64,000 bases of DNA from Taenia hydatigena (taxonomy: Eukaryota > Platyhelminthes > Cestoda > Cyclophyllidea > Taeniidae). Within the stretch, counting starts at the first letter, position 1; the number at the start of each line of letters is the position of its first letter. Below are positions 1-64,000 of the stretch, one piece after another. Both the position numbers and the translations under genes were made by a program. Below the pieces are notes generated by a model, which was not told the origin of the DNA, made no database searches, and was given only the letters and a program-made list of their open reading frames with translations. Location: positions 3,661,543 to 3,725,542 of the forward strand of contig JADWOT020000006.1 of NCBI GenBank assembly GCA_036345935.2, written 5' to 3'.

Positions 1-1726
1 GCGCCTTGAAAATATGCACTTGCATGGGATTGGAGGTGTGTTGGGTTTATTAATGACGTGGTAGTTCACTCAGTGGAAATAGAGCGTCCGCTTGAAGGTT
101 GAGCATCCATATTTGCGTCATGATTCATCGTAACAGTATATTTACGACTTCAAATCCCACATAACAAATCTAAGTAGAACTTCCACCCCTGCTTTGGCTT
201 TGAGGGAACAAAAACTTGGGAAACAAAATGGCTTTGCGCAGAAAATTCGCCTTAGGATATACATAAAAGCCCTCTTAAGGGGTTCCGTTTATCGTAAATT
301 ACTTAATCCCAGGCAAATGATTACCGCACATTTTTTTTGTTTTCAGTCCCAACAACTGTTTAGACACCCTAAACTCATAAAATGCACTTGGGCGGAAGCA
401 TCTGGCGCTCACTAGAGAGTTGGTATTTGAAGTAGTTTAACATTAGTTGACAAAAAATAAGGACCGAATGGTTTGTTTTTTGAGCAATGTGGGTAGACTA
501 AATGAGATGCGATTGAGACACATAACGGTAGTCAAGAGCCTCCAAGGTAAGCCAACTAGTAGGATTCACATGCTTGCTTAAGGGCTTGCCTTGAAGTCAG
601 TTAATAACTTAGAGTTTTTCGTTAACTTAACAGCAAAAATAGCCGCCTAACATAAAAATCATTGCTTCATGGAAAATTCTGATTAACTGACCGCTTCCCA
701 TCTTCTCATCCCTATCATGCACTGGCCGGCTAGTTTTCGCCTAGCCAGAGATATGCCGATATCTCGTAGATTTATAAAACTTGAGGCGTACAGGTAAGAC
801 CAGGTTGGATGGTCTCACTCTGTATGCGATTCTATCCAGTATACTGCGGACGAATGGCTATACCTTATAAACTATTCATATCTTTTAGTATTACAATTGA
901 CTTAAATGAAGTAGTAAAGACATCACATTTTTGCCGCACGCTAGACCCATCCATGGAAGGCGATTTCACCACATCAGTATCCTTCCGGCTTTGTATATTG
1001 CTCTGCATTAGCGCTTTAGACTGAAAGCCACTCAAAGGAATTAGTACCGCGAGGATCGACACTTAGATTGTTCATCAATCAGGTAAGTTTGACTAGAAAT
1101 AAACAAGACCCAGGTTATGCTCCCCATAATAAGCTAAATTTGACAGGATGGTGTACTTGGCGGTCATGAAGCGGCCATGTGTCACACCTTCGTCTCCACT
1201 GTTCAGACATCAAATTATCCCACTTTACAAGGTAAGTAGTTATGTATCCTACAACCATTTTCCGCAAATCTCAAAGAAAAATTTAAATAGATTTGGTTGA
1301 CTAGACTTGCTTTAGAAAGCATGAAGGCAATTTTTTACCTATTAATCGTAAAGACTTAATGCTTGGTTCCGTTAAGGACCACAAATTATGCAATCTCCCG
1401 ATAAGCTTGTAGTCACCGAGCTTACTTTTATGCTTGCAACAACAAAAACATTATTTTAACTAATGCCTAAGCCAAAGAGATGCAAAACGAACCAAACAGG
1501 GATCACACTTAACTACATTAGGGCGTGAAACAACGAGTCGGTTTAATCGTTTTTCGCGTGATTGTCCCTATGATCTTAAAATACTAGCGAATCAGCTGCA
1601 CTGAATAGGGTGGGGATTTTCGAGAAACCACTTTAAAGGTTGAACCAATTTAGGAGATGGTATTTACTCCTCGTGTCCATCACACATCTCCCTTCTGCCA
1701 CACAATCACACATCAGTTGGTCTCAG
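1..1726. other. Upstream of the Ras-like exon; no exon recognised
   Basis: No exon with a P-loop, switch or NKxD motif was found here, so the earlier exons of the GTPase gene must lie left of the window or are too short to see. A strong-looking donor (AAG|GTAAGT type) sits at about 1232, but the sequence before it reads as nothing known. Two tandem-array anchors fall here: 657-700 (matching 29,041 and 50,338) and 1,147-1,175 (matching 29,485 and 50,812). If the gene has an intron here, most of this stretch is that intron (inference). Confidence 0.4.
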
Positions 1727-1943
1727 CCACAAGATGGCATTTCGTCGCGACGTGGCACTGTTGGTGAAGAAGCACTGGAAGGGGTGTGTGCTGGTGGAGT
1801 GCTCGGCCCTCTACAACTTCAACACGCTGGCCATTCTCAGGGAGGTGCTACGATTTGTACAGTATCGACAGTGTAGCCAAAAGCTCTCTACAGCTCAGAC
1901 TGCACAGGCGGTGTGGCAGAGGAATCAGTGTCGCATCCTTTGA
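1727..1943 (+). CDS. Last exon of a Ras-superfamily small GTPase, RASL10/RRP22-like
   Basis: The exon encodes about 71 residues from the acceptor to the TGA at 1941-1943. The acceptor is a C/T-rich run ending TTGGTCTCAG at 1726. The start of the exon reads HKMAFRRDVALLVKKHW, like the helix before G5 in Ras proteins. Then come a strand with VLVECSALYNFN, containing the G5 box (ECSA), and a helix with LAILREVLRF. The tail ends NQCRIL, a CaaX box whose final Leu predicts geranylgeranylation and membrane anchoring. The ECSA-x-YN context is closest, from memory, to the RASL10 (RRP22) subgroup; Rho/Rac proteins also have ECSAL but continue differently. G1-G4 would be in earlier exons outside the window. 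Family membership is well supported; the subgroup is inference. A broken copy lies at 51,693-51,850. Confidence 0.72.
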
Positions 1944-2010
1944 GTCAAATTCCTACTCGCGTCATCTTTCTTGTCATCGAACATCACAAAACTTTAAGTG
2001 AATGTATGGC

Positions 2011-2056
2011 AATAAAAAAGCATGCTCCTTACAAGATCTTCCGCTGGATAAATAAA
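2011..2056 (+). promoter_or_regulatory. Candidate poly(A) signals of the Ras-like gene
   Basis: Canonical AATAAA hexamers occur at 2011-2016 and 2051-2056, about 70 and 110 bases after the TGA. This is the expected distance for a short 3' UTR and supports 1727-1943 as a true terminal exon. The hexamer is common in AT-rich DNA, so alone it proves little. Confidence 0.45.
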
Positions 2057-4846
2057 TTGACTTCAACAAAGTTTGTACGGTGTAGTGAAGTAGGCAGTCA
2101 AAAACCATGAATCGGGTGGTTTATTTGCTTTAGCTATGGGTGTCCATGGTGATATTTCCAGTTAATCATCTCCCCAATGCGCACACGCCCTGTTTTAGTT
2201 TATCTGGACTGTTCATTAGGGAGACAAAAACGTCGCACTGCGCATCACAGCAAACTGCGTGTTGGACGCGAAATCAATCTTCTTCTTCTTTTTCTCTTTC
2301 TAATCGTCATTGTCCTTTAAGACTTTTCCTTCACCTTACCAAATTCGTGGGAATCACACACTACAACTGTTATATCGTGAAAATGTAAGAATAATGGGGG
2401 AAGAATGAGAAAGCTTTCATAGCGTGCTTGTCTCGTATTTCAATTCAAGTGAGAGTACAAAGCGGACGTGATTCGTATTGTCCAGCAAAGTTACAATTCT
2501 TAAATTGAGTCAGCATTAATGCAGACAAAACAATGAAAACACAAAAACCAAACGGATTTCGCTGCAACTCTAACAACACAATAAAATGATGTGTTTTGCT
2601 TGTCTGCGCATGAATATTCACGGTTACATGCAAAGAAGTTGAGAGCCTTACAATATGCTTCATCCTTGTGTTGACTGATGGAACTGCCATCTTCGTCTAC
2701 ACCTGGTAGAACAGTTGGGGATAAATGCTTCAATCCTCCAAGTTATGCATTATCGAAAGTCAGCCGAAGCTCCGAGGGGATGAGTCGTCAGAGGCTTCGC
2801 AGGAAAATTCGAACATGGGTTTCAGTCAAAGTAGGAGGATGAAGAATGTCCTGTATTAAAGACAAAAAATGAGAGAATTATTATTCTTTATGAATTTTTT
2901 AGTAATAATGTTGTTATTGGCACCCAGGCGCTTTTATGTAGGGTGCAAAATCTTATCCAAGGGTATCTTTTATCGAGGTATCAAATTCAGCCACTGAGAT
3001 TGCCAAAAGAAGGCACAATTTGATTTCTTACTGAGCATTCCAAATAAAAATTGCAAGGTGGTTATCCGTGCAGCACTGAGTTCTCAAATTATTTGATGAA
3101 TTTGAATTCGTTATACAATTGACGATAAAGAGTAGTTGAGCACGATCTGACCTTTTTGGAGGCAATCCTAATTGTGACATTTATGTCTCTTTTTGGGAGT
3201 GTTTTTAAATTTCATCCTAATTGCTTACAAATTACAGATTAGGTCGCAAGTCTTTATGAAATATTGACTCTTCTACTTACAAACTGGATGGCTGATGCGT
3301 GGCTATTTGAGGGAAGGTCTGCGGTTTTCTCAAGCCGGAAAGACGAAGATTCTTAAGTAGTAATTAATTTAGGCGACATTTGCTGATGCCTCCTCACAGT
3401 CTGCTCATGGATTAGTAGGTTTAGGCGCATTAAAACAGTATTTAATTCAAATTTATTCAATACCCTTCCTCGATTTTCCCATTCTACTCAGAACCTAAAA
3501 TGTGGTTGAGTGAGCACTTGAGTAGGACAAAACAAACTCCTCCCTTAATTGTTTTACTTTATTTAGCCATTCACGAAGCGCCAGTACAAGAGCCCATGAA
3601 TTAAATGCAACATTTTAAGAGTCCTACACATTTCTCATGAATTTCGACGAAGTTTATGATATAGGTCAGTTTTGTCTAATGCTACCCTTTCCGCTGAAGG
3701 CAGCTCAGTTGGCATAACCTGCAGCATCGAACCTTCATTTGGCAACTTTGTCAAAATCCAGCACCAATTACTTATTGTTAATGCCTTGAAGTATATTTAG
3801 TAAGGAAAATAACAAGCTCAGGACGGTAAAAGTTTTACTGCAAAGTAACTGGGACTTGTTTGAATCCACAAGCCTCATTAAGGGCTTAACGAGCATTTGA
3901 TTGGCAAACTTTACGACCTCTGCGTGGAATGCATTAGCCGTTATGGTTGTAAAACTTCGTTATGAAGTGAAGAGCAAAGAGCTGTTTTAACTGTCCTTTG
4001 TTTACCAAATCTTAGCAGTCCGCCTGTACTTAATATTGCCGTTGTTCACAGTGGTTTGTGGCAAGTTCTACCACAATCGTGCTAGCCTGGAGAACATGAA
4101 AGTGTAAAGTGAAGGCAGATCATGATGGGAGGTGAATTCAACCAAAAAAATCTAGCTGCATGCTCAAGCACAGTTGTAGTGTAGAAAGAAAGTAGCAACG
4201 ATTGGGGAGAAGAAGGGGAGAAAGACCCGATGCTTCCCTCAACCCCATTAATGCTGGCCCTTATTTGAGTGGTAGACATTCAACTTTCTTTTATGCACAT
4301 TAGTTGCAATGTTTTGACAAAACATCTTTATGGACTTAATAACTTTCTCCGCTTTCAAAACCCTCAAGGTAATGGGCAATTCCCTATCCAAATGCCGCAT
4401 CACAGCCTCCTTTCTAACTAACAAGTATGTTCTTTATCCTGACCAAAGACAGCGCATCGAGTTTATTGCGGATTAACGTTGAATTTTACATTTTTTCGGA
4501 CTAATAAATCATCCGAATTGCTTTTCTCTATGAGTGCTCCGCGTAAAGTCTATCACTTACTATCAGAACCTAGCCTCATAATTGATATCCAACGAAATTG
4601 ACGGGTGTCCGAGGTGACAGGGTGGGTGTTAAACCTTGCCTTGAATTTGTTGCTGAATTTATCCAAGAAGCAGAAAATATTCTACAATCAGCGAGACTTT
4701 TTAGCTCTCAGCATATTCCTAATTAGTTCACTGATAGAAGGCCCCCTAGCAGTGCACTTCTTCCATCCGGCTAATGATTAATGAAAGGAGGGAGAAGTGC
4801 CGCTGCTTTGTGTACTTCGCCCTCTTAACCTGCATCACAGCATTAA
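2057..4846. other. Non-coding stretch after the Ras-like gene
   Basis: I see no exon-like frame with good splice sites, no RNA gene and no mobile element. Only short chance frames occur. I found no convincing anchor to unit 2 or 3 here, and this part of the unit is deleted in unit 3. Confidence 0.4.
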
Positions 4847-5068
4847 AAAGAACGATTAAGCATTCTTCGTTTACGTCACTCAAGTAATGTAAGCAATAAT
4901 GCTTGTGTGTCCGCTTGGAGGCTAATCTCCACAACGAAGGAGACAGGATTCTTCTCCACAAAAGTCTATCTACATTTAATAGGCGGTTATTCTGGTAGTC
5001 CGAACCCTGTACATTTGTGCAATGAATGGCATCTCGAAGAGGAATTCGTGTCACCATTGCCTCCTTAA
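4847..5068 (+). other. Conserved segment with a 73-codon plus frame (unit 1 copy)
   Basis: Matches 32,232-32,399 in unit 2 (best between 4,930 and 5,030). The open frame runs from after a TAA at 4844 to a TAA at 5066-5068. Its core reads FFSTKVYLHLIGGYSGSPNP; the unit 2 frame has YFSPEAYLLCAGGLSASPKP at the matching place. The two share the S-x-x-x-Y-L, GG-x-S-x-SP-x-P and a following C. The frames fall out of register to the left of this core. I do not recognise a family. It could be a decayed exon, or non-coding similarity kept in frame by lack of gaps. The minus strand is also open over 103 codons at 4,746-5,057. Confidence 0.25.
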
Positions 5069-6339
5069 TGGACTAAGGATTCATTTTTGGTAGCGAGTAG
5101 AAAATTTCTTGATAATAAACTGGCTCGAGTAGGGTGTAACAGCTAGGAATAATAGTATATCTCTAAAAAGGGTTTCCGTATATATGAGGCCTAACTCCCA
5201 CTTATTTTCTTGATACTTAAAAAGGCCCTACAAATTTCAGTTAAGATTTTCTTCATTAACACTAATGAAGTTCGAGGAAATTCACTACACGGAAAACCTC
5301 TTAAAGAGCCCATCTTTCGCAGCTTCACGCAAATGTCTTCCATTCAACTCACATTTAACCACTAACTTAAGCGCAGAAAGAACAGTTTAATTTAAAGCTA
5401 CACCCTCAGCCGTTTCGGAGAAGTCAGCCAAATTCTGTCCTTCACAGACATAAATAGGAATCATCGCATCTCTTGATCCATGTCAAAATATTTCAGCCGT
5501 TTACATTGATTAAAATAAATCTCAGGAGAGTTTAAGTATGTTTACAGATGACAGGAAATTTCCATATTCCGCAGCCATTTGGCAGAAGTCGATGCTCACA
5601 GTTGGCACCTGTGTGGAAATCAATCTAATGGTGACGGGGCCGTAAATCTGTTATTATTCATTGGCATCTAAAATAGCGTCTACATTGCAATTGGGACTAC
5701 ATGCCCGCCATATACTGCGTCCTCTTTGTGCTAAATTTGTCATTTAAAATCATCCAATGTTGCCTATAAACCTCAAAACATGTATCTTCTCTGTTGAAAC
5801 AGACTTTTAATTCCTACATTCTGCGTTGGCTACAACGTAGTTGGGCTGTAAGAAATATACCTGCAAATAATACCACGCAAGTCATCGAATTTGTGTTCAA
5901 CCTAGCAGGTATTTGACCACAAAGTTACTGGTCCCTCTTGGCGGTTCCAACGAATCTGGGGTTGTGTCCTGTTTCACTAATCAAAGAGTGGATATGCTTA
6001 CTACCTTGCATGCCTATTGCTGGCCTAAAAGTAGAGTCATCTAATAATAAAGGATGGAGTTAAAAATAGTTTTTGAGGAAATGAGTTTAGCTCTATATCC
6101 TCATTGCCACATTGTTGTCATTTTAGTGCTGTCTAGCCATTTCTATCTGTTTTTTATTCAGATAGCAAAGGCGTGGATAAATGATTACATCTTTATAAGG
6201 TACCAGTGACAGCTCCTTACTAGCTTTGTTAAAGATGGTTTGCAGGAGTAGCTAGTTTAGCTTCATTTGTTAACACCATTCCCACAAAACATGGAGCTGC
6301 AACAGTTGCCAAAGGTAGACGTTATTGTTATCCCCTTTT
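5069..6339. other. Non-coding stretch with tandem-array anchors
   Basis: Around 5,575-5,640 it matches unit 2 at 33,075-33,150. At 5,908-5,950 it resembles 16,873-16,910 in the same unit (both have a CAGGTA followed by TCCCTCTTGG). No exon, RNA gene or mobile element recognised. Confidence 0.35.
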
Positions 6340-6500
6340 TTAATGGATCTTTGCCAATTCTCCAGTCCGCAGTCCATACCCCTCTTCCGCCATGTTGAGA
6401 TTTGGCGATGGGCAGTAAAAATCATGGTAGCAGTCTCTCAGGACCTGGTTTGCTTTCCGCTGCCATCAATTTAGCATCCCGAGTCCATTCCTGAATTAAA
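6340..6500 (-). pseudogene. Broken minus-strand frame, copy of 17,101-17,270
   Basis: About 190 bases (6,309-6,500) align well with 17,072-17,270. Read on the minus strand, the two copies share W-[RQ]-[RQ]-KAN near the start, a Y-x-D-[LF]-YC core, then AEE and GE, and both end at a stop near the left edge. In this copy an in-frame TGA (plus-strand TCA at 6,466-6,468) interrupts the frame just before WQRKAN, so it looks like the broken member of the pair. Several changes are at third codon positions, which favours former coding, but the sample is small. The product is not recognised. Confidence 0.3.
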
Positions 6501-9500
6501 AAAGAAGTAATGCTACTGGATTGGAAGAGCATAAGCTACGTGGAGGGGCAATTGGCATGATCTGGTAGCCATGCCACGCAGCGAATTTACGAATGCGGTA
6601 CCCTTAGCTCCCCGCAAAATGATGGTAAGGCGTTAACTGAGGAATCTAAGCATCCCATAATCGACCAATTGAAGTGATAAGGCAGTGTAGTAAATACCGA
6701 CTGATACCCAATGTTTCTTTAAGCCTCCTCTTACAACTGACATGCAATGATTGCTGTTTTGGCATCTGCTTAAGCATTTCTGATGTTGGGCGTTTTATGC
6801 CTAATGAAATTCAAACAACCACTAAAATTAAAACGACCACATAGTTCGTGTGATGAACTGCTCTTTAAAATACTCTGACTTGAACAGTATTAACGAAGGA
6901 CACGTATACAGTTTCGCCAGTTGTCCACATCTGCGACCTTGACAATCCAATGTCGTCACACCGCCCGATAAATACTTTTTGCCTTACAAAGTACATAGAT
7001 TCCAATCAATGCAAAGCTGCGTTTTTAAGCGAGCATTGAGTGGAAAAAAGTGATGCCTTAAGCATAACAGTTTTTCATATACATATAAACTGGCAATTAA
7101 GGTAATCAATTGGCCTTTGAATCTGAGAGAAATTAGCTTTTGCCATTAAAATCGGGAAAGATTTCTTGGGAGCTTTACGGGTACTTAAAATCTTAACTGT
7201 GTAATTTTGCTTAGCCCTTCTGTACGTCGAAAGCACACATTCTGCCCTTGCACTGTGTCTTCCTCTTCGATAGAAGCCTCAGTACATTACATATTTTATG
7301 CAAGGCTCCATAGTGTCGAGGTCGCGACGAATGAAGTGGGACGTTTTACAGCCTGGTTACTCAACATGGTGGAATTTCTTTTGTTTAAAAAGGGCATATT
7401 TTATTATTTCATGACCTATTAATTTGTTAAAAACACCTGGAAATACGGGTTGCATCAAAATGCACTTAAAATTAAGTAATTTTGTAAGGTATTAACCTGC
7501 ATTGCTCTGAAGACTTAGACGGCAAACATGGTGGATGCTCACCAACGAATTCGACTCTCAAGCCTGCGTTAGAGCAGCCGTTTACATATGGAAAATTCAC
7601 AAGATTCAAGGGACCGTGCCTGATTGCTTCCAATCAACACAGCGAAAGGCAAATGACTAGAGCTCCAAAGGCGCCCGCTTTATGGCAAATTATCAACACA
7701 TTTTTGTGTATTTATTGCGAAGAAGTTGAAGGCAAAGAGTAGGGCAAAAATTTACCGTGGTGACATTTTTTGCCAGGATAAATTAAGACGGAGATGCGTT
7801 GAGCACTTAGTTCCAATTCTACTTTTTCTTATTAATTGCAGTCATTGGGCACACAAGGACGCTTGCAACATTCATTTTATCGTTTTTACCTTGACCAAAA
7901 TTATCAGACTGCGTTTGGTCTATGTTGCTGCCTGCTACTCTGCTACCAAATGCCTTTCTTTTGCCATTTACACCAGTTTATATAGATAGAAATGAAGAAT
8001 GGAAATGAACGGTCACTCACCAATGCCACTCTGTCTAAGTTCGAAGCATGTTAGGGTCACTACAGCCAGGAATCGGCCAAAAATACTTGTCTATGCACAC
8101 GGAGGTAGGAACATCCAACTTTAAAGCCCGCTGCCTTCTGCCGAATGAATACGCCTATGTAATTTGGGGCGAAGCAGTAGTGAGTGGAAATTTTATTTTA
8201 AAATTAATAAAATGCAACTCTTATTTGTGACAAAGCAGATGCCGTCCGCCCCTCGAAGAGGAGAAAACGTGTTCTGATCAGGGTTAACCTTACTACCTTT
8301 ATCCTCCAGTTGTTGCTACATTGTCAAAGCATTTCCTCTTCCATTTTTTGGAAAGGTATGGCGAGTGTAAAGACTGAGCTTATCAAACAAAAGTCGCTTC
8401 TTTCTTCCACTGAATTGATCCAAATATGAGCATCTTTTGACCAATTGGTAGGTACTGGTCATAACCAACTCCACAGTGCTATTTTACAGCCTCCATATGG
8501 ATAATCGAGATTTTTCACTCATTTAAGATGTTTATTTGTCTGTCTACGCAAATTCCTTTGGATGACTCGAATCAAATCCAAAGAATAATTCTCTTTACCC
8601 ATCCCATGCTATCAAAAGCAAACGACTGTCAACAATATCAGTTTGAAAGAAAAGTTAGCTTTATTTAAAGAAGATTAATTTGGTGTATCGTTTTTTAATA
8701 CCGGCAATCGTCTTGAAGCGAGTATCATTAAAATGCTTATTGGTGGAGCATCCAGATGATTCATTGTATAAATTACCTACAATTTTTCCTATCTTTAGCA
8801 GCTTATCAAAGTAGGTGGAGTCGCAAGGTGAATTGAGAATGAATGGATGCGTTTCGTAAGCAAAGAAATTTATTGGGCTTGTAATGTGTGATGACCATAT
8901 TTACCTTCTCCACTTCCACTTAGCGCCGAGGTTTACCGATCGGGTATCCAAACTGAGTAGGGCAGATGAAGACCCACGATTTGAGTTATGCATAAACCAG
9001 GAGTTGCGTAGAAATTGGCAGATACTTTAGGTTCAATGATTTTAGGCTGAATGAAAGAAGTGGCTATGGATTGATGAGAAATATCTTCATAAGCATTATG
9101 ATTAACGGATTGTTCCAAACTGATGAATATACTGCACAATTCGTTTGTTTACTTAAGCCTCGATTCGGGTTGTGCGGCAATTTGTTTGCTGTCACTCTAT
9201 TGTGTTTTCTTTTGTCTTCAGGCAAGATTCGGGCTCTACTTGGTGACGACTGGACCTAAACGCGACAGTACAAGGATATACGCTGCGAACAAGAACATCT
9301 GTAACAACTTTTAACAGAAGGATCGGAAATGAATAAAGACAGGTATCCATTGCTCTGTTCTTTAAGCATATTAGTAATAATCGAGGCAACATTAGCAGTG
9401 AGCAGCGAAGACGTCGGCTAGGTGAACACGCGATGCCTCCTCCACCTCACTTCTAGCCTAAGAGATATGGCTGGGCAGCACCAAAGTAAGAACCAAGGAG

Positions 9501-10250
9501 CAATGGTAAACTAGTTTACATCCCATTTTAGATCAGTGTTCTTACGAGTGGTGATGGTAATGCCTAGTGATCAGCTCATTTTCCTTCCATGATGAGGTTT
9601 CTAAAATGATTTAAACTCAAAATCCAGTAGAATCACTAAGAGGAGTCAGTGATGCATTCGTAAAATGGCTTCTCATTTGCATGTAAATTTTTTGGCTGGT
9701 GCAGCTGATTTCTTGTTCTTTTTGCCTGAAAGGCATCAACTTCGTTGTGCTGACCGACATGAGGGGTTAAACGAGAGGAGGCCTGGTTGTAATACTCAAA
9801 AGGAGAGAGCTATGGAGTACTGTGATCGTCTATTTTATGCCTGGGTTTCGGTAAGCGGGCACTGAGGCCTCTGATGGCCGGAATGAATTTTGGAATATGT
9901 CACTATTCACCCGTCTCTTTCACCCCTAGGGAGTACATATTCTGTTCAAATGAATAACAACTTAAAATATCGACTTGGTTTCAAGTGTTTATCACTTTTC
10001 TGTGGAAGCCTTGAACTGTCTTATGTGTAAATGAACCCGCTGATTGTTCTCTCCTTTGATAACATCAGAAGTGGGAAAAGCTTTTTGTCGAACAAGGGTA
10101 AATTGCTTCTGCTTGGCGTTTTACCCGCGAGTCTAATGCACCAGTCCTTTGAAATGCAGTTTCGATAAAACGTGTCGGTGTGGTTAATTAGGTAAGTGTG
10201 CAGTGCGTGCAAATGAACGCTTTAAGAATTCCCATCCTCCAACAACCAAT
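6501..10250. other. Non-coding stretch with one clear unit 2 anchor
   Basis: At 7,205-7,310 it matches 34,798-34,900 in unit 2; both carry GCTTAGCCCTTCTG. A plus frame there reads LSPSVRRKHTFCP against LSPSAGQRHITCP in unit 2; the minus frame also stays partly similar (RRAK), so the coding strand is undecided. The remainder holds only chance-length frames and no recognised RNA gene or mobile element. Most of this stretch is missing from unit 3. Confidence 0.35.
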
Positions 10251-10255
10251 GCGTG

Positions 10256-10273
10256 CACACACGCACACACACA
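10256..10273. repeat. CA microsatellite, unit 1
   Basis: Short imperfect (CA)n tract. Unit 2 has a tract in the matching place (37,491-37,506). The matching place in unit 3 (about 53,501-53,512) has lost the repeat but keeps the flank ACAGAAATGCATTTAAGC seen in unit 2. Confidence 0.6.
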
Positions 10274-10722
10274 GGAAGCAAAAACTTGGTGGTGTGTGTG
10301 CCTGTCAAGATGTCAAACCATAATTCGTCTAAAAGAGCAGGAGAAAGGGAAGGCACTTTAAATGCTCAGCATAGTGATTTCAAGTCGCTTAGGTAACGAA
10401 GGAGGAAAAGGTCACAGCTGTTTCGTGCCCTATTTACCTTCATTACAGTATCTGCAGCCAATCCAGTAGGCTGCGTATTTAATCACCCTTCCACTTGTAT
10501 TTCCCTGCCTACAATGTATGCCGACCTCTTTGAACTGTCTAGCAAGGAACTTCCAATCGGATTGTTAACACACTTAAAGCGGTACCGACTTGCTGATGCA
10601 TGTAATCGCAATTATTTTGACGTAATTTGGTAAGCACTTTGGCATTGCCTGTTTGAACACTTTAGCAGAAAATTTTCAATTACACTCAGTAATGGAATTT
10701 CAAGGAATCAAAACTGCCTCTG

Positions 10723-10893
10723 ATGTACACACAGACACACCCCCATAGAGAAGCAGGGATATTACCCACGTTAAGGCTTATCTTCATTACGCCAGTAATC
10801 CAGATGTGTCACTGGTTGGAGTTCAACTACCCATCAAAAACGCCCAATTACCCACCACCCAATTCCACTTATGGACACACACCCACACACATA
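10723..10893. repeat. Paired CA-tract block, unit 1
   Basis: Two short CA-rich tracts (10,726-10,741 and 10,875-10,892) flank about 130 bases that hold a TTCATTACGCCAGTAATC-like core. The same arrangement is at 37,892-38,036 and 53,840-53,991, one of the clearest three-way anchors. Further match continues to about 11,000, where all three copies have a CATTATAAT or CATTACAAT motif. Confidence 0.6.
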
Positions 10894-53500: not shown

Positions 53501-53839
53501 TATGCACTTACAGAAATGCATTTAAGCAAAGTGGGCATTTTAAGATACCATGTCCCTTGTCAAGATGTCATAGCAAAAATCATTTGAGAAAGTAAGAGAA
53601 AAGAAACATTTTAAATGCGTAGCTCGATTAATACAGATGGCCAGAGTTGTACACATTGTAATTGCCCAGGTGGCAGTGATCGCAGCTTTTTCCACATCAT
53701 TTTAAGTTCTCTGCATTTCTTTTAGCATCTACAGCTATTCCAGGAGACTAACAATACTTATCGACTTGAACTACTAAGTGATTGAGTATCTTCCAATCTC
53801 TTATACTGACCAAACTTTAAAGGGTTCTGTTAGCCTCTC

Positions 53840-53991
53840 ATTCACGCACCTCCGCATACCCACACGAGTACGGATGTCAAGCACTTTAAAACGTACCTTT
53901 ATTGTGCCAGTCATCCCCATGTCTGACTAACGAGTGATTAACTTCTCGACATGGTTTCCTGCTCACTCATCCACACACACACACATTTATA
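53840..53991. repeat. Paired CA-tract block, unit 3
   Basis: Matches 37,892-38,036 and 10,723-10,893. The left tract is nearly lost (ACGCACCTCCGCATACCCAC), the right tract is (CA)6-7 at 53,972-53,985. The following ~100 bases share CAGCCTCATTATAAT with GCGACCTCATTATAAT in unit 1. Confidence 0.6.
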
Positions 53992-54421
53992 CAAATCAGT
54001 ACTGCGTTTTTAGTTTTAAGAATCACCCATTTCTCCTCAGTGCAGTTAGACTTTCAAAGCGGCAGCCTCATTATAATAAGTAATAAACGATGCGTCTTTT
54101 CACTCTCCCATAACCTGATGGCTTGATGGAGCAGTTGATCACAAGATTTTTCCATCTTAGGATCAAAATTTTTTTATGCAGTAAGTACTCTGACAGTCTA
54201 AACAATCAATCATATCATTGTTGCACCGTCTGTTGCGGTGGCCACTTATGGATTAAGAAAGCGTCTTACTGCCAGCGCAGCATTTTGCTATCAAATTTAG
54301 CAGTATTAGTGCGTATTCTTTCGTACCTTTTGCTGTAATCGCACCAGCCGGCTTGTGTGAAAGGTTAGAAGGTGAGTATGGCTTTCTTATTTTTTTGTGC
54401 TTGATGGTACTTGCTTAAGAG

Positions 54422-54613
54422 ATGGGACACATCGTCTCAAAGTTGGTGGTCAACATATCTGTAGGCGCAGTACCAATTAAGATGCTTAAAATGGGAATGC
54501 AGTCTAATGAAGTACCCTCAGTCACGCGTTTCGAGTTACGAATGAAAATTACTGGCAGTTTCCACAGTGAAGACAGTGGACGCTCATTTCACTCGGAGGC
54601 TTTCTACCACTAA
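54422..54613 (+). other. Unit 3 copy of the 38,508 frame
   Basis: It starts at the same ATG (MGHIVSKLVVNISVG) and stays open for 63 codons because a frame slip relative to unit 2 carries it past the shared TGAAAA site at about 54,540. If the 38,508 frame is real, this copy is altered at its C-terminus. Confidence 0.22.
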
Positions 54614-55419
54614 GCAAAATAAAGCTTTCTATTAAATGGATTGTAAGTTACATAAAGGTCAATTGAGGTGGAGGTTGTAGTAGGTGGGTTCACTGGTTGA
54701 GCTCGAGAACCATTAAGTTGATCAAACTTACGCGTCTTCACTTTACCGTTGAAATGTTTGTCGACTGAATGTCTGATTTGTGAAGGAGAATAACTTGCGA
54801 ATCACGAATCTAAGCGAAATTATGTGTGTAGCATTGGTTATCTCATTACGATTCTCCCACTTCTGCACAACGACACACTCTTCGGGAAACCATCACTTCA
54901 GCCTCAGAAAAAAAGCTTTCGGCGCGTTCCTATGAAGATGCGGTTTCGCACTCCTCAGCATAAATCGTTGACCTCTAGAAGCCCTACTAAAAAAGGATAT
55001 GAAATTTAAATTCTATTTGATATGATTCAGACCAAACTTAAGGCATAGAAAAAACTGCTTCTTTTAGCTCTAAAGAGACATTTTAGAACCAGGAAACCAG
55101 AATAGAGAAAGAATGTATAGTTTTACCCCCGCAACACAGTGCAAGATCTCATATCTTGAACAAACGAGAGGCGGAAGAGCAGAATGTACTTCTGAATTAA
55201 TACTCCTAGAAATGGTAATCACCACTCTTCTCGACAGGCAACCGTATATACCATAGAGAAGTTAAGTAGATGAACAAAGTACGAGAAGAGGGAAGGTAGT
55301 CAGTTGCCTAGCTTGGTTCTAGGAAGAAAAAACGTACCACAAGAGCAAAATCATTGGTATTTACTGCAACGTTTACGTTCTCTTATCGTTGGCGAAACCA
55401 TCGTCTCCTGAACCTCTCT

Positions 55420-55545
55420 TAAGGGCTCCTACATTGGTTTTAGTGTCACCTTTTTGAAAACACAATGATGCCTACGCGAATGAAAACCATTATCGTCCCC
55501 TCCATGATATCCGCCGCGGTGCTCTCCTCCTTGTTCAATTGGCAA
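55420..55545 (+). pseudogene. Frame-broken copy of the 39,459-39,606 candidate exon
   Basis: Shares the GTAAGA donor (55,546) and the following CTTCAT-AATTA element (55,621) with unit 2. SYIGFSV stands where unit 2 has VVIGSMR, but a TGA follows within the frame. The last part in another frame reads IVPSMISAAVLSSLFNWQ. Confidence 0.25.
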
Positions 55546-56389
55546 GTAAGAATTTTTTACCGCTCTGGTTGTACCAAATCCTCTGCTTTTACTCATATTA
55601 GCATCAGGTTAACAGATTAACCTTCATTAATTATAATTTTCGATTTTGCAAATGATCCGCCTGTCTTAGAGATAAAACCACTTTTGCTGTATAAAAAATT
55701 AATGCCTTATTTTCATGTCAAGTCTATGAAGAGCTCTGAGTGTTCTTGACTCCTACTTCTACCTGCTTTACTTATTGCTTGAGTCATGAAAAACCGATTA
55801 CTGGAAGCACCTGGCGTTTGCTTGGTAGGTTGCTCTTTAAGCTGTCTTAAAGTATCAACCATCAAAGACGTGAATCGCAGTTGGATCCGCCGCTAAAAGC
55901 AAATTAACTGACAGAATTGCATTTTTTGTCTCCCAAATCTAAAAATTACTTAAATTTGCTGATTGAATTTGGGTATGAAGAAAAGTTGGTCAAGCCTACT
56001 TTTGGTCGAAAAAAACATTCAACGTCTCATTGTCCACCTGTGCAGGCCGCCAGTTCAAAGATTGACGCAACAGAGGGGGATGATTGAAGGGTCTCCCAAG
56101 GTATAAAGTACTTATAGTTAGGTCTGCGCGTTCACTTATTCTACTGTAACTTTGAGTGACTGCATTTAAATCTGAAGGAGGGCTCTTTAAAGCATTTATA
56201 TTTTTCTATTAGACAATTGCGCCTATTTTCAAACTCATTTGCCTCATTGCATCTAGAGACTGCGCCGGTGAAAGTGCAGCAGTTCCATTCGACTTTGCCG
56301 AAGCCAGCGGCACCCGTAGTTATAAACTTGCCAGCAAGTAGGTCCTTGTGTAAAGGATTTGATCGAGTGCTGAGGGAGGCGGTACTGCT

Positions 56390-57260
56390 CTAGCAACTGA
56401 GTGAACTACTTACCATGCAAAGTGCTTCACTGCCAAACACAATTTTCCTCATTCTCTCGGAAAATATGATGCAGGTACATAAATTAGCTCTTTTTTTCTC
56501 TCAATTTGTGCATTTCGGTGCGCATCATTTGGATTAAGTAGGCCGCCAGATTGGTGTCAAGAGTCGTGCGTGGTTCGCAGTAGTTAAAATTATTATTTTT
56601 TATTAAATAACGTGCTTGCGCTGGCTCGTATCTGTGTGAGTAGAGTCGCTATCAAATTTAACATAAAATTCTGTTCAGTGGCATTTCAGAGAGAAGGAGA
56701 TGTCAAATTCGTAAGCGAGTATTGAACCGTCGCAAGGGCTTGAGCTAAAACTGGCTTCCAGTCACTCAATGAAATTTAGGCCAGCAGTTTGCTATTAAAT
56801 GTCAATGAAAAGCAAGCATATAATGGGGTGATTGTTGGATTGCGTTATGAGATATCCCAGTTCAAATTTACAATTTACCAATGGAATCACGTCCACATTT
56901 TTTACTCTGAAGCTTCGACTAACAAGTTGAGGTTAAATTGGGATGCCTTAAAGTCTTCTTTTTATTCAATTTACACTTTGTAATGTGTGATTCACGCCTG
57001 AAATCTCTAGTGGTCTTTCAATAATATATTATAGTCCACAAATTTTCGACTGTGTAATTCAGCATCCTTCCCCTTTCCTCGAAGTTGATTCGTTACGAAG
57101 TAAAAGATCGCTGTCATTTAAACCAGGACACAAAAGCTCTAACCATTAGTTTTGTGACGATTGAACGCTTTGGCCTGTTTCAAAGATTTGATGCCTTTAT
57201 GCGCAGCATTCTGGCCCCCACCTTAAAAGACTGATCATGGCAAAGACCAGATCTAAATTG
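56390..57260. repeat. Run of anchors, unit 3
   Basis: 56,390-56,482 (AGCAACTGAGTGAACTACTT, ending GATGCAG|GTACAT), 56,850-56,900, 57,105-57,130 (CGCTGTCATTTAAACC) and 57,178-57,250 (TTCAAAG, TGCCTTTAT, TCATGGCAAAGACCAGAT) match 13,423-14,410 in the same order and similar spacing. A 107-codon minus frame at 57,294-57,617 has no motif or counterpart. Confidence 0.55.
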
Positions 57261-57757
57261 GCGTAGTTTAAGAAAAAATTCACTATCAAATGATCAGATT
57301 TGATTTGTGGTCACATTGTAGTGCCATTTTGTGTTTAGCAAATCTTGTAGAAGAGTGCATTCATTAGGAAGAAGTGGCCGCATTAAAGCATACGTTGACA
57401 AATTTCGGGAGCACTTGAATATCTTTAAAAATAGCGTTTTATCAGACTGTAGAGCACAGCACTGATCTCGCCTTAGCCGCCTAAAAGTGCAGGGGCGATT
57501 GGAATCTCCAAACTGATGGAAAGGCATTACGTTTTTGGTCCGAATCGCAAATTTCCAGAAAGTGTATCCAAATTCCTGTTTTTCAGGTCTTTCAAAGTGA
57601 TCATATCTACTTGTCAAGTCGGCTTCACCTGATTCTCAAAGCGGCACGAGTTTCTCGTTAAAGCTATGCAAGGCCTATAGGGGACACGAGCTGTGTTAGA
57701 AGATCGTACGCCATCGAGAGCTATTAGACAATGGCTCACACCCACTCACCTTTTGTG

Positions 57758-57990
57758 TTTTCTTGGGACATTCCTCCAAGGAACGACAATACCTTTCCTT
57801 TTCCTTTGGACTTAAGTAAGTAATCAGGCAATGGGTTGATTGAGGTGGAGAGAAAACAACGACAGGTGGGTCAGAGCTTCGTTTTCCTTCCAGAGAGGCT
57901 AACCATTTGATAAAGGCGGATGCAGCATGCTGATAATAAGGTGGGAAAGGAACTATAGATTGCAGTGGTTATTGCTTTGGTGAGTAAAAT
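57758..57990 (-). other. Conserved minus-strand segment, unit 3, frame-broken
   Basis: Counterpart of 14,809-15,048 and 41,683-41,868. One frame has LTKAITTAI and SLSGRKTKL followed by a stop and later TSIN; another has LSPKEKERYCRSLEECPKK. No single frame spans the segment, so this copy is broken if coding. Confidence 0.28.
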
Positions 57991-58689
57991 ATCACAGGAA
58001 GCTTTATGCAAAGTCAATTATTTTTTTTCTGCTGAAAGGTCATACAAAGTCGGTTGGCTATATTATATCATAAAACAGCTTAATTGATTGTCACCAAGTG
58101 ACATCTTCTTTTCAACTTGAAGTTGACAGAGTTGGTAGAGCTTATTGTGCTACACTTACAATTCATTCCTGGTTTTTGGTGACCCTAAGACTGGACAGTG
58201 AGGTATCTACTTACTCACTTATTTTAAGAAACTCATTTGTGGAAGCGAAAAGTCTTTTTCTACACTTACATGGGTGTTTAACCGTTATTTGAATAAGGGT
58301 ACTTTTCCTCTGTAGTAACAACTGAAAATCCTCTCTTAACGTTAGACAGTCATGGCTTAAGTGGTGTGGCACTCAAAAGCGGACTCACAGATCCTTAACA
58401 ATAATCCGTACTTCTACAGAAGCAGGTTTTGGTGTCCAGTGGGAGGAAGGGAACACTGTAGACGTTACCTAGGGCTCACCTTTGGCCTTATGGTCTGGCA
58501 CATCAATGTAGCAATACTGTTGAGGTGCATACAACTGCGCTGTAGAAAAATTAATCTCTCGCAAATGTGTTTTCATAGCATTACAAATGCGGATAGTGGG
58601 CCATATTGAAACACTGGAATGAGATTTTCGCCTAAAATGTAATTTTTTTAATGTTTGGTATGCCACCCTTACAGCCGGAAGATGTCATC

Positions 58690-58740
58690 TGTGTGAAGTC
58701 GCATTTTGCATACCATCCATGGGGATGAAGGTGTTCAAGC
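58690..58740. repeat. Short anchor, unit 3
   Basis: GCATTTTGCATACCATCCATG corresponds in part to GCTTTTCTACAAACCGTCCATG at 15,824 and to ACAAACCATCTATATG at 42,847. Short, but in the expected place. Confidence 0.35.
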
Positions 58741-61700
58741 GCCCTGTAGAGTAACCGCTTATCTCTTACATGGAGATCTCGAATTCAGACCTAAAGCATT
58801 ACCTTATCGTCTTGCATGTCTCACCACTGCATTTTAAAAATAAAACTTTTCGACTCAAGAGGCAGCATTGAAGAAGTCTCTGGTGCAGTGCTTACCTCCT
58901 TAGGAAGCGCTTGTTTCCTCTTCTACCGTGATACAGCCAACCTGTAGTCATGCTGAAATAGATGAGGCTTGAGAGAGGGGTACAGCAAAAGCGCCATTTC
59001 GAGTAGTCTCTTACGTAGATAATGCGTTGACTGGTCTTTGTCAGACCTTTCATAGTCGTTCTTAGCTGTGCTAGGCATTAGAACCATATTATGAACCACC
59101 AGCTACCAATGTTTGCGATCACGCTTTCTTTTGGCTCTGCCAGGTCCCGCTTTTTTTGTAAGCATCGTAAAATTTGGCATTAACTTGTGGAGCACCGTAA
59201 AAGTAGTCCAAAAATGTAATCTTAACGTACAAAAAGGCTAATATGGATACCTCTGAGATGGTCTAGATGTCATACTGCTCCGGGAAGGCACAATGTTTGG
59301 GCCATTAGTGCCTGATAAACGCAATTTTTAAAGTAGCAAGCATTCCTGAAAAGTTTTGCGCATATATTTCCATCTTTCTCTAATAATATACCAAGTTGTG
59401 ATAAAATTCTCTTTGGTTTGAAAGTTCAATTAAATGGCTAAGATTTGTTATTTAGGTTAAAATATAGAAATTAAAGGTGGCGGCTTTGTAAAGAGCAGTT
59501 TGCCTACCTTTTCTAAAAAACGTTTTGTCAAGAGAAGTTTAATGAAAGAAAGTGGAAAGCGGCAGGCAACTATTTTTACGTAGCGGTGTGGTAAAAACTG
59601 TCCTTCTCTGAAATTATAGGCTTTAAGTGGTGCAACCCTCTACTTGTGAGCGCTTTGAATAATGCTGTTTAAACAGGATTATATGCTCTCCCAACCACAC
59701 TCGCTTGTGTCTAAGCAATCAAGAGAGAGGTGAGTACACGAATATCCCGTCAACTTTCCCTCCTCCCCGCAACGTATTATTTAGGGAGGAATATGTGGTT
59801 TCACTTACGCAGTTATTTCAATGAACAGTTTTGTTTGTCATGGAGTGACTTCAGGGAAGGTGAATGGTGATACGAACTATAATGGTATGAATGGTGCGAC
59901 GAAGATATCACTTTTTCCTGGCTTTTGTTGCTAAAAGTAACGCGCATCTCATTCTTCCCCCTCCCAATCACAAGTAGATTAATCGCTCAAAACATCTCCA
60001 CTCTCATACTAGCATTTTGAAGAAGGCTTTTTAAAGATGGAATGTTAGAATGGAGGAACTGTGATGCCTAGGTACTACTTCAGTTGTTTGCTTGACTCAA
60101 TTATACTCCTACTGGACGATCTGGCCTCCGGGCCAATTGCATTAGCTCATTCGTACTGTACCTTGGCGACACCCATTCAAGGGCGGTCTCACTCTCATTT
60201 TCTGTTTTCCACCGCAGCGCTCCACTGAGAACCGCATTAATTATGGTTAATGTCCCTCCGAAGAGCATGGAACGAGTTGTGATTACCTTGCGTCACTTTA
60301 GTGCTTACGATTGCTGCATGCTTCCACATTCTTCTTTTCTTTTTTTTTTATCCATCTTCCGCTGATTTGTCTCCAACTCGCAGTAGGAATAGCATTGAGC
60401 TTCTATCGTTTGCTAACTGGTATTCAGCAGAACAAACCTATTGGTCTCATGCAACTCCAAAGGCCAAATTAGGAAGTAGACAAGTAAATTAGATTCATTT
60501 GCACACCAAAGCTAAATTCATTTCCGGCTCAAGAACTAAAATTCACAGACTCATTTTAATGTCTCATATAATTGTTTGCCGAAAGAAGAGACAGCCTTTG
60601 TAGCAGCGACCTTCAACAAACCGTTTCTGTGAGCTAATGTAAACGCTAATATCCTCATTCAGAATTTGCCTCCAAAAGCAACTTCTACCGCAATATAATG
60701 ACTGTGAAGGCCCTGACTCAGCAAGCTAGTGTACGCTTCGATGAAACGAGGGTGTGAGAAGGAAAAACTTCATGCAATAGGTGGACTAAATTTAGAATCA
60801 TTGATTAAAATTTCATTTTACTCTGCTAATAAGTTTAGCAAAGTAATAAAAGGGAAACAATGGGGATTTGCTTAAACCTGCCATACTAAATGAGTGAATT
60901 TTATTATTTCGTACCCCATATGACTAGCTAAAAATCCATCTATGCATGTAAGAGATGCGTTGGATTATTTTTCTTGGCAATCAGTTGATCAAATCCAACT
61001 CTTTGACTGCTTGACTAACCGAACATTCTTTGACCTTTGTACGTGGCAGATCAAAGAAAAATAGTTGATGGCTAATCGCATCGTCAATCGAGACCCTAAA
61101 AGAATATTTATCAATAACATAGATTGAAAGTAATGAGAATGTAATATAAAAGTGAGCGGCAGAGTTTTGTTACTTGCATTTTCTTCAAGTGCACAGTCTT
61201 CGTGTAAAGCACCATCAAATCAGCACACTCAAAGTATCGTCTGCTTTCAGCAATGTGGTACGCTGATTTGTAAAGCTATGGAGATGGCATTTTGATTAGC
61301 GTTTTTGGTTCACAGTCAAAATATTACTAAAATAGGCCCATTCAACTCTCGACGACTAGTAGCTCAGTCAATGTTACACCCACGGAGTGACCAAATGCCT
61401 ACTCAACACCCACACAGACAGGGTAGCTTACTATCCAGAACTGTAGCCCTTTCTTTAGATACGTGTAGAAGTCCCATAGAACTCTGCTATGCTGCGTTAA
61501 ATGTAGAGGATGAAGTGTACACGCAATTGTAATGGAAGCGCTTTGATTTGAGGAAATGGGACCGAGAATCACTAGTTGGAGCTTAGATCATTTAACCGCG
61601 GTATCAAACCATAACGTCTTGCAATATGCTTTAATCATAATGTTTAGTTCATTCCTAAAATCCACCAAGAACCATCGAGTTCATGTCGGCATTTCTTTAT

Positions 61701-62110
61701 TCCTTGTGATTCTTAAATAAGGTATCATGTCGCATCACTTATTAGCTGGATTTACATCTTAAGTAGACAAAATAATCCATAGTTAATGTTCTAAGTTAGT
61801 GTAATACTTAAACCTGGCTCAGTAGCGCAGACGAGTACGGCGAGGTAATTTGCTATTTTACATTGTCAGGCGACTCAAGGCTTTATAGTCACCTAGTTTC
61901 TAAAGTTGCCTCCCTAAGACTTCTTCCAGTAAATGGTCAGTTTAGCAGTTATCGTCTAAAAGAGAAGCCAAACATGACAGCCTTTCTTTTGAGGTCCATT
62001 ACCGGGCGAAAAGAGCACAAGCTGGTCCTGTTTGAGTAGTGAGATCATTAATTTTTCTGAGCTAGAAAAGTAAGTATATCGTCTTACGACAACTATCAAT
62101 TCACTTACAC
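58741..62110. other. Non-coding stretch, not aligned
   Basis: No supported exon, RNA gene or mobile element. I could not align it with 42.9-44.9 kb or 15.9-18.1 kb by eye. A T-rich run is at about 60,331-60,350. Plus frames 60,301-60,492 and 61,305-61,532 are of chance length. Confidence 0.3.
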
Positions 62111-62119
62111 ATGACTCTG

Positions 62120-62240
62120 AGGTCTGACGTTATTTTGTGCCTCGTGAAGCGTAAATCCTCTCTATGCAGTCAGTCATTCACCAATTGCCTCCTCATGATT
62201 TCTCTGAGGGCAAAAAATGCGTTTAAATATTTACAGGGCT
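62120..62240. repeat. Anchor block, unit 3
   Basis: Very clear match to 45,300-45,430 and, more weakly, 23,281-23,400: GTGCCTCGTGAAGCGTAAAT against GTGCCTCATGAAGCGTAACT in unit 2. Confidence 0.6.
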
Positions 62241-63049
62241 AAATAACAATCAAGCAAAAAGAGTGTAGGAAAAACAAACCGGACTGTAATGAAGTTAACT
62301 AATTTGTGAGCATTTGCTTTGAAGCAAATTTCGAAATTATCGGCAACCATGTTTGCCCCACTAGGACTACGAATTCGGGTTGCGGCGTGTAGTGAAGCAG
62401 GTTAGCGGTGGAATACTGTCGACCTTTTTATTTCTAAGAACCACACTACTGATGTAGCACACAATTAATTGGTAATTTTTGATGCATCTCCTATAACGAG
62501 GATATCACACCGTTGTTTTAACTACTTTTTTGAAGAAAAAGGTTAACAGCTCATACATAGCCCTCAGTGCCGCTGTTCGCAGTGCTACCTGTTAAGTTCC
62601 TTCAAGAAAATTGTCACACACTTGTGCCTTTCTGCTTGGATTGGTTCATAAGAAGGGAATGCAGGCAAAAAAGAGGTGAAACGAGCAAAGAGAACGTCTC
62701 TTCATCACCCAAAGCCCAATATACTTAAATGTGTCGAGGACAAATAACGGGATCGAGAACGTGCGTTTTTTAGAAAGGTATCAGTTAAAAGGGACAAGCA
62801 GTATGTCGGAGACATCCAAGATTATTGACGGTCAATCTTACTGATGCACATTGCGCAATCCTCCCTTCCCGTCAACTTCAGCACTCGTATGCCATTATTC
62901 ACTGGTGCGTGCCAAACATTCCAATGCACCCAAATACAACTATGCAACGCTCATCCTTTTAGTGTGGACTTGCAATGCATAATTTCTAGCGTCTGATGGA
63001 CCCGTCTCCATAACTTATAATTCTCCGATAGACTTTATTGCTTGCTCGA

Positions 63050-63305
63050 CAGCCCACTTACTTATTTACCATCTTAAGGAAGAAGACTGTGTCATTCAGT
63101 GAAGAAGCAAATGCACTCCGCAAGCTTTGTAGGTAATCAAAAGGGTAAATGCGTCCCTCCCAACGGTAAAAAATTTGTTGCTTCTTTAGTTGGTTGCTTA
63201 ATTAATAGAGAAGTATTTAACTAGAATGTTCCCGCTGGGAGAAAAAATTGGTTTTCATTTGACCCTATGCCAATTAAGGTTAAATTGACTTCTAAAGCTG
63301 GTTTG
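63050..63305. repeat. Anchor block, unit 3
   Basis: 63,050-63,130 matches 24,068-24,150 and 46,519-46,600. 63,235-63,305 matches 24,220-24,290. Confidence 0.5.
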
Positions 63306-63391
63306 ACATGCGAGTGAGCTAGTAAAAAAGGATTATCAAAAGTAGCAAATCAAATAACGCTTTGAATTGGCGATGGCTCCGAATCAGTAGT

Positions 63392-63649
63392 CTAGTGGAC
63401 TGTCTCACAGTTGCATGGATGATGAGGAGTCATGAGAAACGGGGAATTAGCCATGCGTGACAAGTGGCTAGATGGAAGAGACTGGCTCACATGGTGATAG
63501 AGAACACGCACAATCATCGCTGTGTTAAAGGGTACCTGAATCTGGAAGACGAATTCACGAATATAGACGGAACCGGTAAATAACGAATAAACCGGTGGAT
63601 CGAAATCGAATGCGATCTGATCCATACTCAGATCTCCACTCGGATGCAA
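63392..63649 (-). other. 85-codon minus frame, best-preserved copy of a conserved segment
   Basis: ATG at 63,649, stop at 63,392. It reads DQIAFDFDPPVYSLFTGSVY, then a hydrophobic FVFQIQVPF and SHLSRMANSPFLMTP. Units 1 and 2 have relatives at 26,812-27,087 and 48,140-48,340. Codon composition is less AT-rich than most frames here (ACTCGGATGC, CGAAATCGAATGCG on the plus strand). Unknown family; possibly a real exon of a minus-strand gene. Confidence 0.28.
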
Positions 63650-64000
63650 AAATGGCGGTTCACTGGGATCAGCACTCCTTTTTGATGGTATCGCAGGTCA
63701 CCACCTCCACACATGCACTGTTATCGATGTTCGCAAGGAGACAAATCACTTCAACTCACATCACTTGGAATTAAAGTGTTTTTTTCTCACAAGGAACGAT
63801 TGTTTTTTTGTGGGCCATGCAGGCATGGAATCCATTTTGGCAGAATTTCGCAAAAATTGCTTCGAGCTAGGTTTTATTTATTTGTGAAAGTTGTGGATAA
63901 AGAATCGTAGGCTGCTGTTTGAGACGTATGGATGTGGCAAATAAACAGGATAGAATTGAACAGAAGTAACTCGAGACCCAAGTGCCTAGTCTTCTTAGTG

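What the first reader, a model, noticed from the sequence alone, without database searches (positions are those of the whole stretch)
1..64000. Ancient head-to-tail triplication of a 14-28 kb unit
About twenty short segments recur three times (some twice) in the same order and orientation, with offsets that change smoothly. The copies look only 60-70% identical at the anchors, so the array is old, yet it remained tandem and colinear over introns and intergenic sequence. Such long-lived tandem arrays without obvious intact genes are unusual.
Basis: seen in the sequence. Interest (0 to 1): 0.8.

Follow-up and report, generated by a model that had tools for sequence, protein, structure and literature searches.

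The report
Old tapeworm duplication array, patchily homogenised
The three old repeats seen here are one corner of a roughly 215,000-base pile-up of duplicated, mostly gene-free DNA around a small-GTPase gene in a tapeworm, in which same-direction copies have drifted apart while mirror-image copies are nearly identical in patches, as if they had been copying over each other.

Summary
Self-alignment gives 44 significant off-diagonal matches against 0 in each of 20 dinucleotide shuffles, mostly on three colinear diagonals. But "triplication" is a slice. The window lies in a 306-Mb genome of a taeniid tapeworm, inside a ~215-kb array between UFL1 and an EF-hand gene, with about eleven blocks in both orientations by my reading. 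The units contain the 3' end of RASL10B plus other DNA. One intact RASL10B and a near-identical mirror copy with a premature stop lie just upstream of the window.

Same-direction copies in the window are old: 53-62% identical over HSPs of 300+ columns, no 100-column window above 82%. Four inverted pairs carry 94-100% tracts; in three of them most of the surroundings are 55-80%. Old copies are not more conserved at those positions; tracts are GC-richer. Best reading: tandem and inverted segmental duplication, then ectopic gene conversion between inverted copies, direct copies surviving only once diverged. A new variant of known palindrome behaviour. Assembly artefact and generality are untested.

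The parts
1..28290 (+). Unit copy A (its left edge is near the window start): Y segment, RASL10B 3'-end fragment, D segment, X segment (segment names are mine)
   Evidence: colinear HSPs to B and C; painting of the array
28291..49575 (+). Unit copy B, about 7 kb shorter than A; around 45,046 it lacks what lies at A 18,220-23,041
   Evidence: anchors used
49576..64000 (+). Unit copy C, continuing beyond the window to between 66 and 68 kb, where the array ends
1609..1947 (+). Fragment of RASL10B coding sequence from about codon 431 of the upstream ORF to the stop; 1647-1947 is 99.3% identical to both full-length copies upstream while 30-column windows of the flanks are about 37-80%: short conversion-like patch
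51579..51832 (+). Decayed RASL10B 3'-end relic in copy C (two frames, one stop)
   Evidence: tblastn
10241..13473 (.). Conversion-like tract in copy A, about 98% identical (one 50-column gap at 80%) to the inverted copy at about -111.3 to -107.9 kb
14340..16244 (.). Conversion-like tract in copy A, 98.7% identical over 14,436-16,244 to the inverted copy at about -114.2 to -112.0 kb
18625..19485 (.). Conversion-like tract in copy A, 97.9% identical to the inverted copy at about -120.6 to -119.5 kb
30366..33319 (.). Conversion-like tract in copy B, 98.5% identical over 30,366-33,188 to the inverted copy at about -20.9 to -17.9 kb
35931..37724 (.). Conversion-like tract in copy B, 97.9% identical to the inverted copy at about -25.6 to -23.6 kb

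Best explanation
This is a long-lived segmental-duplication array in a taeniid tapeworm. Shown: the interval between UFL1 and an EF-hand gene, which are near neighbours of RASL10B in Anoplocephala by locus-tag number, is filled by about 215 kb of repeated units in both orientations. The five RASL10B remnants found outside the two full-length copies all lack what lies before about codons 426-455, so the units probably descend from one truncated 3' end plus neighbouring DNA. Same-direction copies in the window have diverged to 53-62% identity. Four inverted pairs have 94-100% tracts, and in three of them these alternate with surroundings mostly at 55-80%. Inferred: (1) an early duplication with its breakpoint inside the RASL10B coding sequence founded the array; (2) later tandem and inverted duplications, for example by replication template switching, enlarged it; (3) inverted partners were homogenised in patches by ectopic gene conversion, while stretches that fell below the similarity needed for recombination escaped and drifted; (4) same-direction copies that stayed similar were lost by deletion, so only the diverged ones remain. 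The array DNA itself is most likely non-functional apart from RASL10B.
For: Array extent and flanks. Local restriction: RASL10B protein matches 5 places, a 2,165-bp X-segment probe 7 and a 401-bp probe 2, the DNA counts including the probe itself, and every one lies in this array (counts are lower bounds by the tool's own remark). Gene identity: RASL10B 93% and UFL1 88% to Taenia asiatica, the best named hits. Neighbour order: Anoplocephala locus tags 43330 (EF-hand), 43334 (RASL10B), 43344 (UFL1). Mosaic: two-state over one-rate lnL gains of 920, 1,136 and 889 in the 3 inverted pairs tested; Kimura distance 0.013-0.028 in 8 tracts against 0.29-0.57 in 8 stretches outside. Not constraint: 570 old HSP rows are 62.4% identical at tract positions and 62.9% elsewhere. 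Direct copies in the window: maximum 82 of 100 columns over 1,989 windows. Across the array, HSPs of at least 300 columns: 80% or more, 4 inverted and 0 direct; below 60%, 121 inverted and 119 direct (its filter leaves out the central self-palindrome, also inverted). Tract GC 0.427 against 0.4055, reached in 7 of 2,000 circular shifts.
Against: Only four inverted pairs carry long tracts. If blocks were paired at random the chance of all four being inverted is 0.08, so the orientation rule is suggestive only, and the eleven blocks behind it are my own reading. No reads, second assembly or related genome was available, so collapse of young tandem copies in the assembly could mimic the absence of similar direct copies. 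Identity is not cleanly two-level everywhere: A against L2 is 83-90% over much of 19.3-21.8 kb. Tract divergences are rather uniform, which could mean one burst rather than a continuing process. Conversion across 62-75% background identity is not expected from ordinary homology requirements (recalled) and needs the assumption that tracts are leftovers of once larger similar regions; the 301-bp coding patch with its 37-80% flanks is hard for that assumption. Five residues of the patch differ from T. asiatica, but four of the five also occur in Echinococcus and may be ancestral, so the recency of the patch rests on its 2 mismatches in 301 bp. The constraint test used only pairs below 65%, chosen by identity.
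Confidence: 0.72

Rival explanations
1. The high-identity tracts are functional non-coding islands held by purifying selection while the rest of the duplicates drift.
For: Sharp alternation of high and low identity.
Against: Old copies of the same unit are 62.4% identical at tract positions and 62.9% elsewhere; in the 14 rows with both kinds the mean difference is -0.009, s.d. 0.044. The tracts sit at largely different unit positions in the three pairs. In the coding patch the one mismatch of the 295 most similar bases is a third-position change, too few for selection on the protein alone.
Confidence: 0.04
2. Assembly or polishing artefact: inverted copies were falsely duplicated or patched with each other's sequence.
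For: Near-identical inverted segments are a known weak point of assemblies (recalled); no reads could be examined.
Against: The 344 kb examined holds no N. Tract pairs still differ by 0.013-0.028 (Kimura) and most are bordered by colinear sequence at about 60-80%, which false duplication would not produce.
Confidence: 0.13
3. The mosaic comes from recent re-copying of kilobase segments into homologous places by replication template switching, in a few bursts, rather than from continuing gene conversion.
For: Tract divergence is similar in three separate pairs, 0.013-0.028, while the RASL10B pair is younger, with 6 differences in 3.9 kb. Inverted triplications by replication error are described in yeast (PMC4689423, abstract seen).
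Against: Raised GC in tracts fits repair-based conversion better. Replacement at exactly homologous positions is what conversion does.
Confidence: 0.25
4. The repeated DNA is a dispersed transposon or satellite family that happens to be dense here.
For: An interspersed element (5,832-6,600 and relatives) does occur inside and outside the array.
Against: Three genome-wide probes, RASL10B protein, 2,165 bp of X and 401 bp, match only this locus. Beyond the array the fetched flanks show only scattered matches of up to about 1 kb. The tool warns that it skips very common words, and the D, Y and element searches did not complete.
Confidence: 0.04

Closest known systems
Human Y-chromosome palindromes, e.g. 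P6 (PMC3723533; start of abstract and passages seen)
   Same: Inverted arms homogenised by gene conversion; multi-kilobase tracts (mean 2,068 bp, maximum over 9 kb there; up to about 4.3 kb here); GC bias.
   Different: There the eight palindromes exceed 99.9% arm identity and lie on a sex chromosome; here homogenisation is patchy inside arms otherwise mostly 55-80% identical, in three pairs whose matching tracts lie 30-138 kb apart, in a tapeworm (hermaphrodite, recalled).
Actively maintained inverted repeats at paralogous gene pairs in Caenorhabditis (PMC1803023; abstract and passages seen)
   Same: Worm, inverted paralogous genes, structure kept by proposed gene conversion, local 98-100% identity beside 48-64% overall identity in some examples.
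   Different: There short intergenic arms (124-160 bp in the examples seen) with gene pairs; here kilobase tracts in almost gene-free DNA, with same-direction copies for comparison.
Primate X-chromosome palindromes with GC-biased conversion (PMC8981503; listing and start of abstract seen)
   Same: Inverted arms kept similar by conversion with GC bias.
   Different: Conserved across primates and above 99% arm identity; conservation across tapeworms is untested here.
Segmental duplications reported in the Taenia hydatigena genome (PMC8384839; abstract, two results sections and passages seen)
   Same: A Taenia genome of nearly the same size (308.54 Mb); local duplications noted.
   Different: That study counted blocks of at least 5 genes (MCScanX), so a gene-poor array like this would be missed; it reports 46.68% of the genome as repeats of unknown class.

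Membership tests
Gene-converted palindromes / inverted-repeat amplicons | Inverted copies with near-identical kilobase stretches | tested here: met
   Four inverted pairs with single matches of 0.16-3.9 kb at 94.5-99.8%
Gene-converted palindromes / inverted-repeat amplicons | Arms near-identical over their whole length | tested here: not met
   Only the RASL10B palindrome (3.9-kb arms, 478-bp spacer) is near-identical throughout; three pairs are mosaics
Gene-converted palindromes / inverted-repeat amplicons | Identity due to conversion, not youth or constraint | tested here: inconclusive
   Mosaic with diverged colinear surroundings and no constraint in old copies favour conversion; template-switch re-copying gives the same pattern, and no polymorphism data exist here
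Gene-converted palindromes / inverted-repeat amplicons | GC enrichment | tested here: met
   0.427 (without CDS and central palindrome) against 0.4055, 7 of 2,000 shifts
Gene-converted palindromes / inverted-repeat amplicons | Concerted evolution across related species | not testable with these tools
   No relatives of this genome are held
Segmental duplication (at least 1 kb at 90% or more; definition recalled) | Copies at 90% or more identity over 1 kb | tested here: met
   2 inverted HSPs of 10,507 and 4,678 columns at 91% in the array
Segmental duplication (at least 1 kb at 90% or more; definition recalled) | The three direct copies in the window reach that identity | tested here: not met
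   Maximum 82 of 100 columns
Dispersed transposable element | Copies elsewhere in the genome | tested here: not met
   Three probes answered, all hits in this locus; D and Y probes unanswered
RASL10B small GTPase | Ras-family G domain and orthology to named RASL10B proteins | tested here: met
   PF00071 31.3 bits, above cut-off 21.6; 93% to the T. asiatica and 79% to the Echinococcus granulosus protein named Ras-like protein family member 10B

The most novel reading that the evidence does not exclude
The array shows a recombination sieve: same-direction duplicates persist only after drifting beyond recombination range, whereas inverted duplicates are kept and homogenised in patches for a very long time. 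If arrays like this are common, gene-free local duplication, invisible to gene-block surveys and filed as 'unknown repeats', helped make some Taenia genomes about twice the size of their relatives'.
Probability: 0.25. Interest if true: 0.65.

Novelty: new variant of a known kind. Interest (0 to 1): 0.45.

Why it matters
One locus holds old direct copies and patch-homogenised inverted copies of the same sequence side by side, so the effect of orientation on the fate of duplicates can be compared within one stretch of DNA. It also suggests a cheap genome-wide test for the unexplained repeat content of large taeniid genomes: the one such genome paper looked at (PMC8384839) leaves 46.68% of the genome as unclassified repeats and searched for duplications only as blocks of five or more genes.

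Tried and rejected
Protein-coding units: all-against-all comparison of 4,372 ORFs of at least 30 aa in the array put RASL10B pieces first in the top 40 shown; several other ORF sets there had two diverged partners, which I took for plain DNA homology without testing each. RNA genes: Rfam at gathering score on the window and on L008-L022 gave nothing (the other fetched loci were not scanned); one sub-threshold bacterial sRNA match (E 0.05) taken as chance. Array of alternative last exons: dropped, because the supposed intron is coding in other cestodes, so codon ~431 is a breakpoint inside an exon. Plasmid collection: no near match for window 27,000-35,000, uninformative for an animal genome. 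Species: genus Taenia is likely from protein identities; T. hydatigena has a similar genome size, but the species was not settled. Literature: eight searches on Taenia with segmental duplication, cestodes with palindromes or inverted repeats, RASL10B, conversion with palindromes, conversion with Platyhelminthes, Taenia chromosome-level assemblies and inverted repeats; none of the rows listed describes this locus, judged by title and start of abstract. Searches listed 10 of 27, 15 of 83 and 12 of 21 papers; only open-licence papers are held.

Full report
Check of the observation. The window has 41% GC, no ORFs beyond shuffles and no tandem repeat, tRNA or Rfam gene at the thresholds used. Self-blastn finds 44 HSPs at E<=1e-3 against none in each of 20 dinucleotide shuffles, and 56 HSPs at E<=1 against 1 in a reversed control. 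Mismatches show no period of three.

Beyond the window. The window is G000:C6:3,661,543-3,725,542 of a 306-Mb genome. With 200 kb upstream and 80 kb downstream added, repeats fill about -147 kb to between +66 and +68 kb; outside that the fetched flanks show only scattered matches of up to about 1 kb, which I read as interspersed elements. Painting everything onto copy A's coordinates gives, from left to right, two reversed units (L1, L2), two forward blocks (Q, R), reversed blocks (Q', B', P'), then forward P, A, B and C: eleven blocks by my reading, several partial. Coordinates are window coordinates, negative upstream.

What the locus is. The only intact gene I found in the array is RASL10B, a small GTPase: an ORF at -8356..-6740 (+) and a near-identical mirror ORF at -10875..-9289 (-). 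The right copy reads as 553 aa with a short first exon at -8475..-8434 and a 77-bp GT-AG intron (the splice is inferred from the T. crassiceps protein). The left copy has a premature stop early in its second exon and a 1-bp indel inside the inferred first exon. The named relatives with the best scores are T. asiatica, T. crassiceps and Echinococcus granulosus, and UFL1 at the left edge is 88% identical to T. asiatica, so the genome is a taeniid tapeworm. The right neighbour is an EF-hand gene. In Anoplocephala the three carry locus tags 43330, 43334 and 43344, so they were probably neighbours ancestrally; the array then filled the space between them. The five partial RASL10B remnants begin at codons 426-455 of the upstream ORF, which points to one founding truncation. 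Genome-wide, the protein matches only this array (5 places), as do an X-segment probe (7 matches with itself) and a 401-bp probe (2 with itself).

The unexpected part. Three inverted pairs are mosaics. A against L2: 98-99% over most of 10,241-13,473 and 14,340-16,244 and 98% over 18,625-19,485; the low stretches are 66-86%, with some short high ones between. B against B': 98.5% over 30,366-33,188 and 98% over 35,931-37,724; low stretches mostly 61-76%. Q against Q': 97-98% over most of -89.7 to -81.6 kb and 99% over -93.6 to -92.8 kb; low stretches 50-83%. P against P' is near-identical throughout, with 6 differences in 3.9 kb. A two-state model beats one rate by 889-1,136 log units in the three pairs tested. 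Kimura distances are 0.013-0.028 in 8 tracts and 0.29-0.57 in 8 stretches outside. The same positions in older copies are no better conserved than elsewhere (62.4% against 62.9%; 570 rows used, 169 dropped as 65% or more identical or under 300 columns), so selection is not the likely cause. Tracts are GC-richer by 2 points, reached by 7 of 2,000 circular shifts. In the window a 301-bp patch of RASL10B coding sequence (1647-1947) is 99.3% identical to the full-length gene upstream with flanks of about 37-80% in 30-column windows. Five of its residues differ from T. asiatica, but four of them are shared with Echinococcus, so they do not date it.

Orientation. HSPs of at least 300 columns in the array: 80% or more, 4 inverted and 0 direct; 70-80%, 3 inverted and 1 direct (the direct one, and one of the three, are the coding patch against P and P'); 65-70%, 4 and 1; 60-65%, 26 and 20; below 60%, 121 and 119. 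The central palindrome is left out by that filter and is inverted. In the list of matches of at least 93% and 60 bp (20 rows), 18 lie wholly in the array: 16 inverted and 2 direct. The direct ones are the 301-bp patch, whose partner exists in both orientations, and a 66-bp match; a further direct match of 186 bp joins the left edge of the array to the flank. As independent pairs the long-tract cases are 4 of 4 inverted, with chance 0.08 under random pairing of my eleven blocks: suggestive, not proof.

Mechanism. Founding by a duplication that broke inside RASL10B, growth by tandem and inverted duplication, ectopic conversion between inverted partners in patches, and loss of similar direct copies by deletion. 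The first is read from the shared truncation and the third from the mosaic; the second and fourth are inference. Known parallels are sex-chromosome palindromes and Caenorhabditis inverted gene pairs; a replication-error model for inverted amplification exists in yeast (abstract). What is unusual is patchwork homogenisation within arms that have otherwise drifted, with direct copies of the same unit alongside as a built-in comparison. The main open risks are assembly collapse of young tandem copies and the single-locus sample.

Noticed in passing
5832-6600, 17017-17331, 36180-37180, 43662-44324 and several places outside the array (e.g. -199 to -196 kb, 72-74 kb, 142-143 kb): An old interspersed element in both orientations, mostly 55-70% identical between copies; its genome-wide count could not be obtained.
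   Followed up: partly
11730-11980, 38886-39117, 49197-49507, 54763-55077: A second short repeat, about 58-62% identical, that matches in inverted orientation between copies and so cuts across the colinear pattern.
   Followed up: no
-183670..-182054 (L004, upstream of the window): A 539-aa ORF that reads by eye like part of an LTR-retrotransposon polyprotein; no family search was run.
   Followed up: no
110,400-136,200 (L027-L030), minus strand: Five exon-like ORFs that look by eye like parts of one large immunoglobulin-domain matrix gene (perlecan-like), to the right of the array; not searched.
   Followed up: no
-195192..-193447 (L003): A 582-aa ORF that looks by eye like a multi-pass membrane receptor; no Pfam match at E<=0.01.
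   Followed up: partly
A/L2, B/B' and Q/Q' tracts: Tract divergences are rather uniform across the three pairs (Kimura 0.013-0.028), whereas the RASL10B palindrome is younger (6 differences in 3.9 kb); one burst or an equilibrium cannot be told apart.
   Followed up: partly
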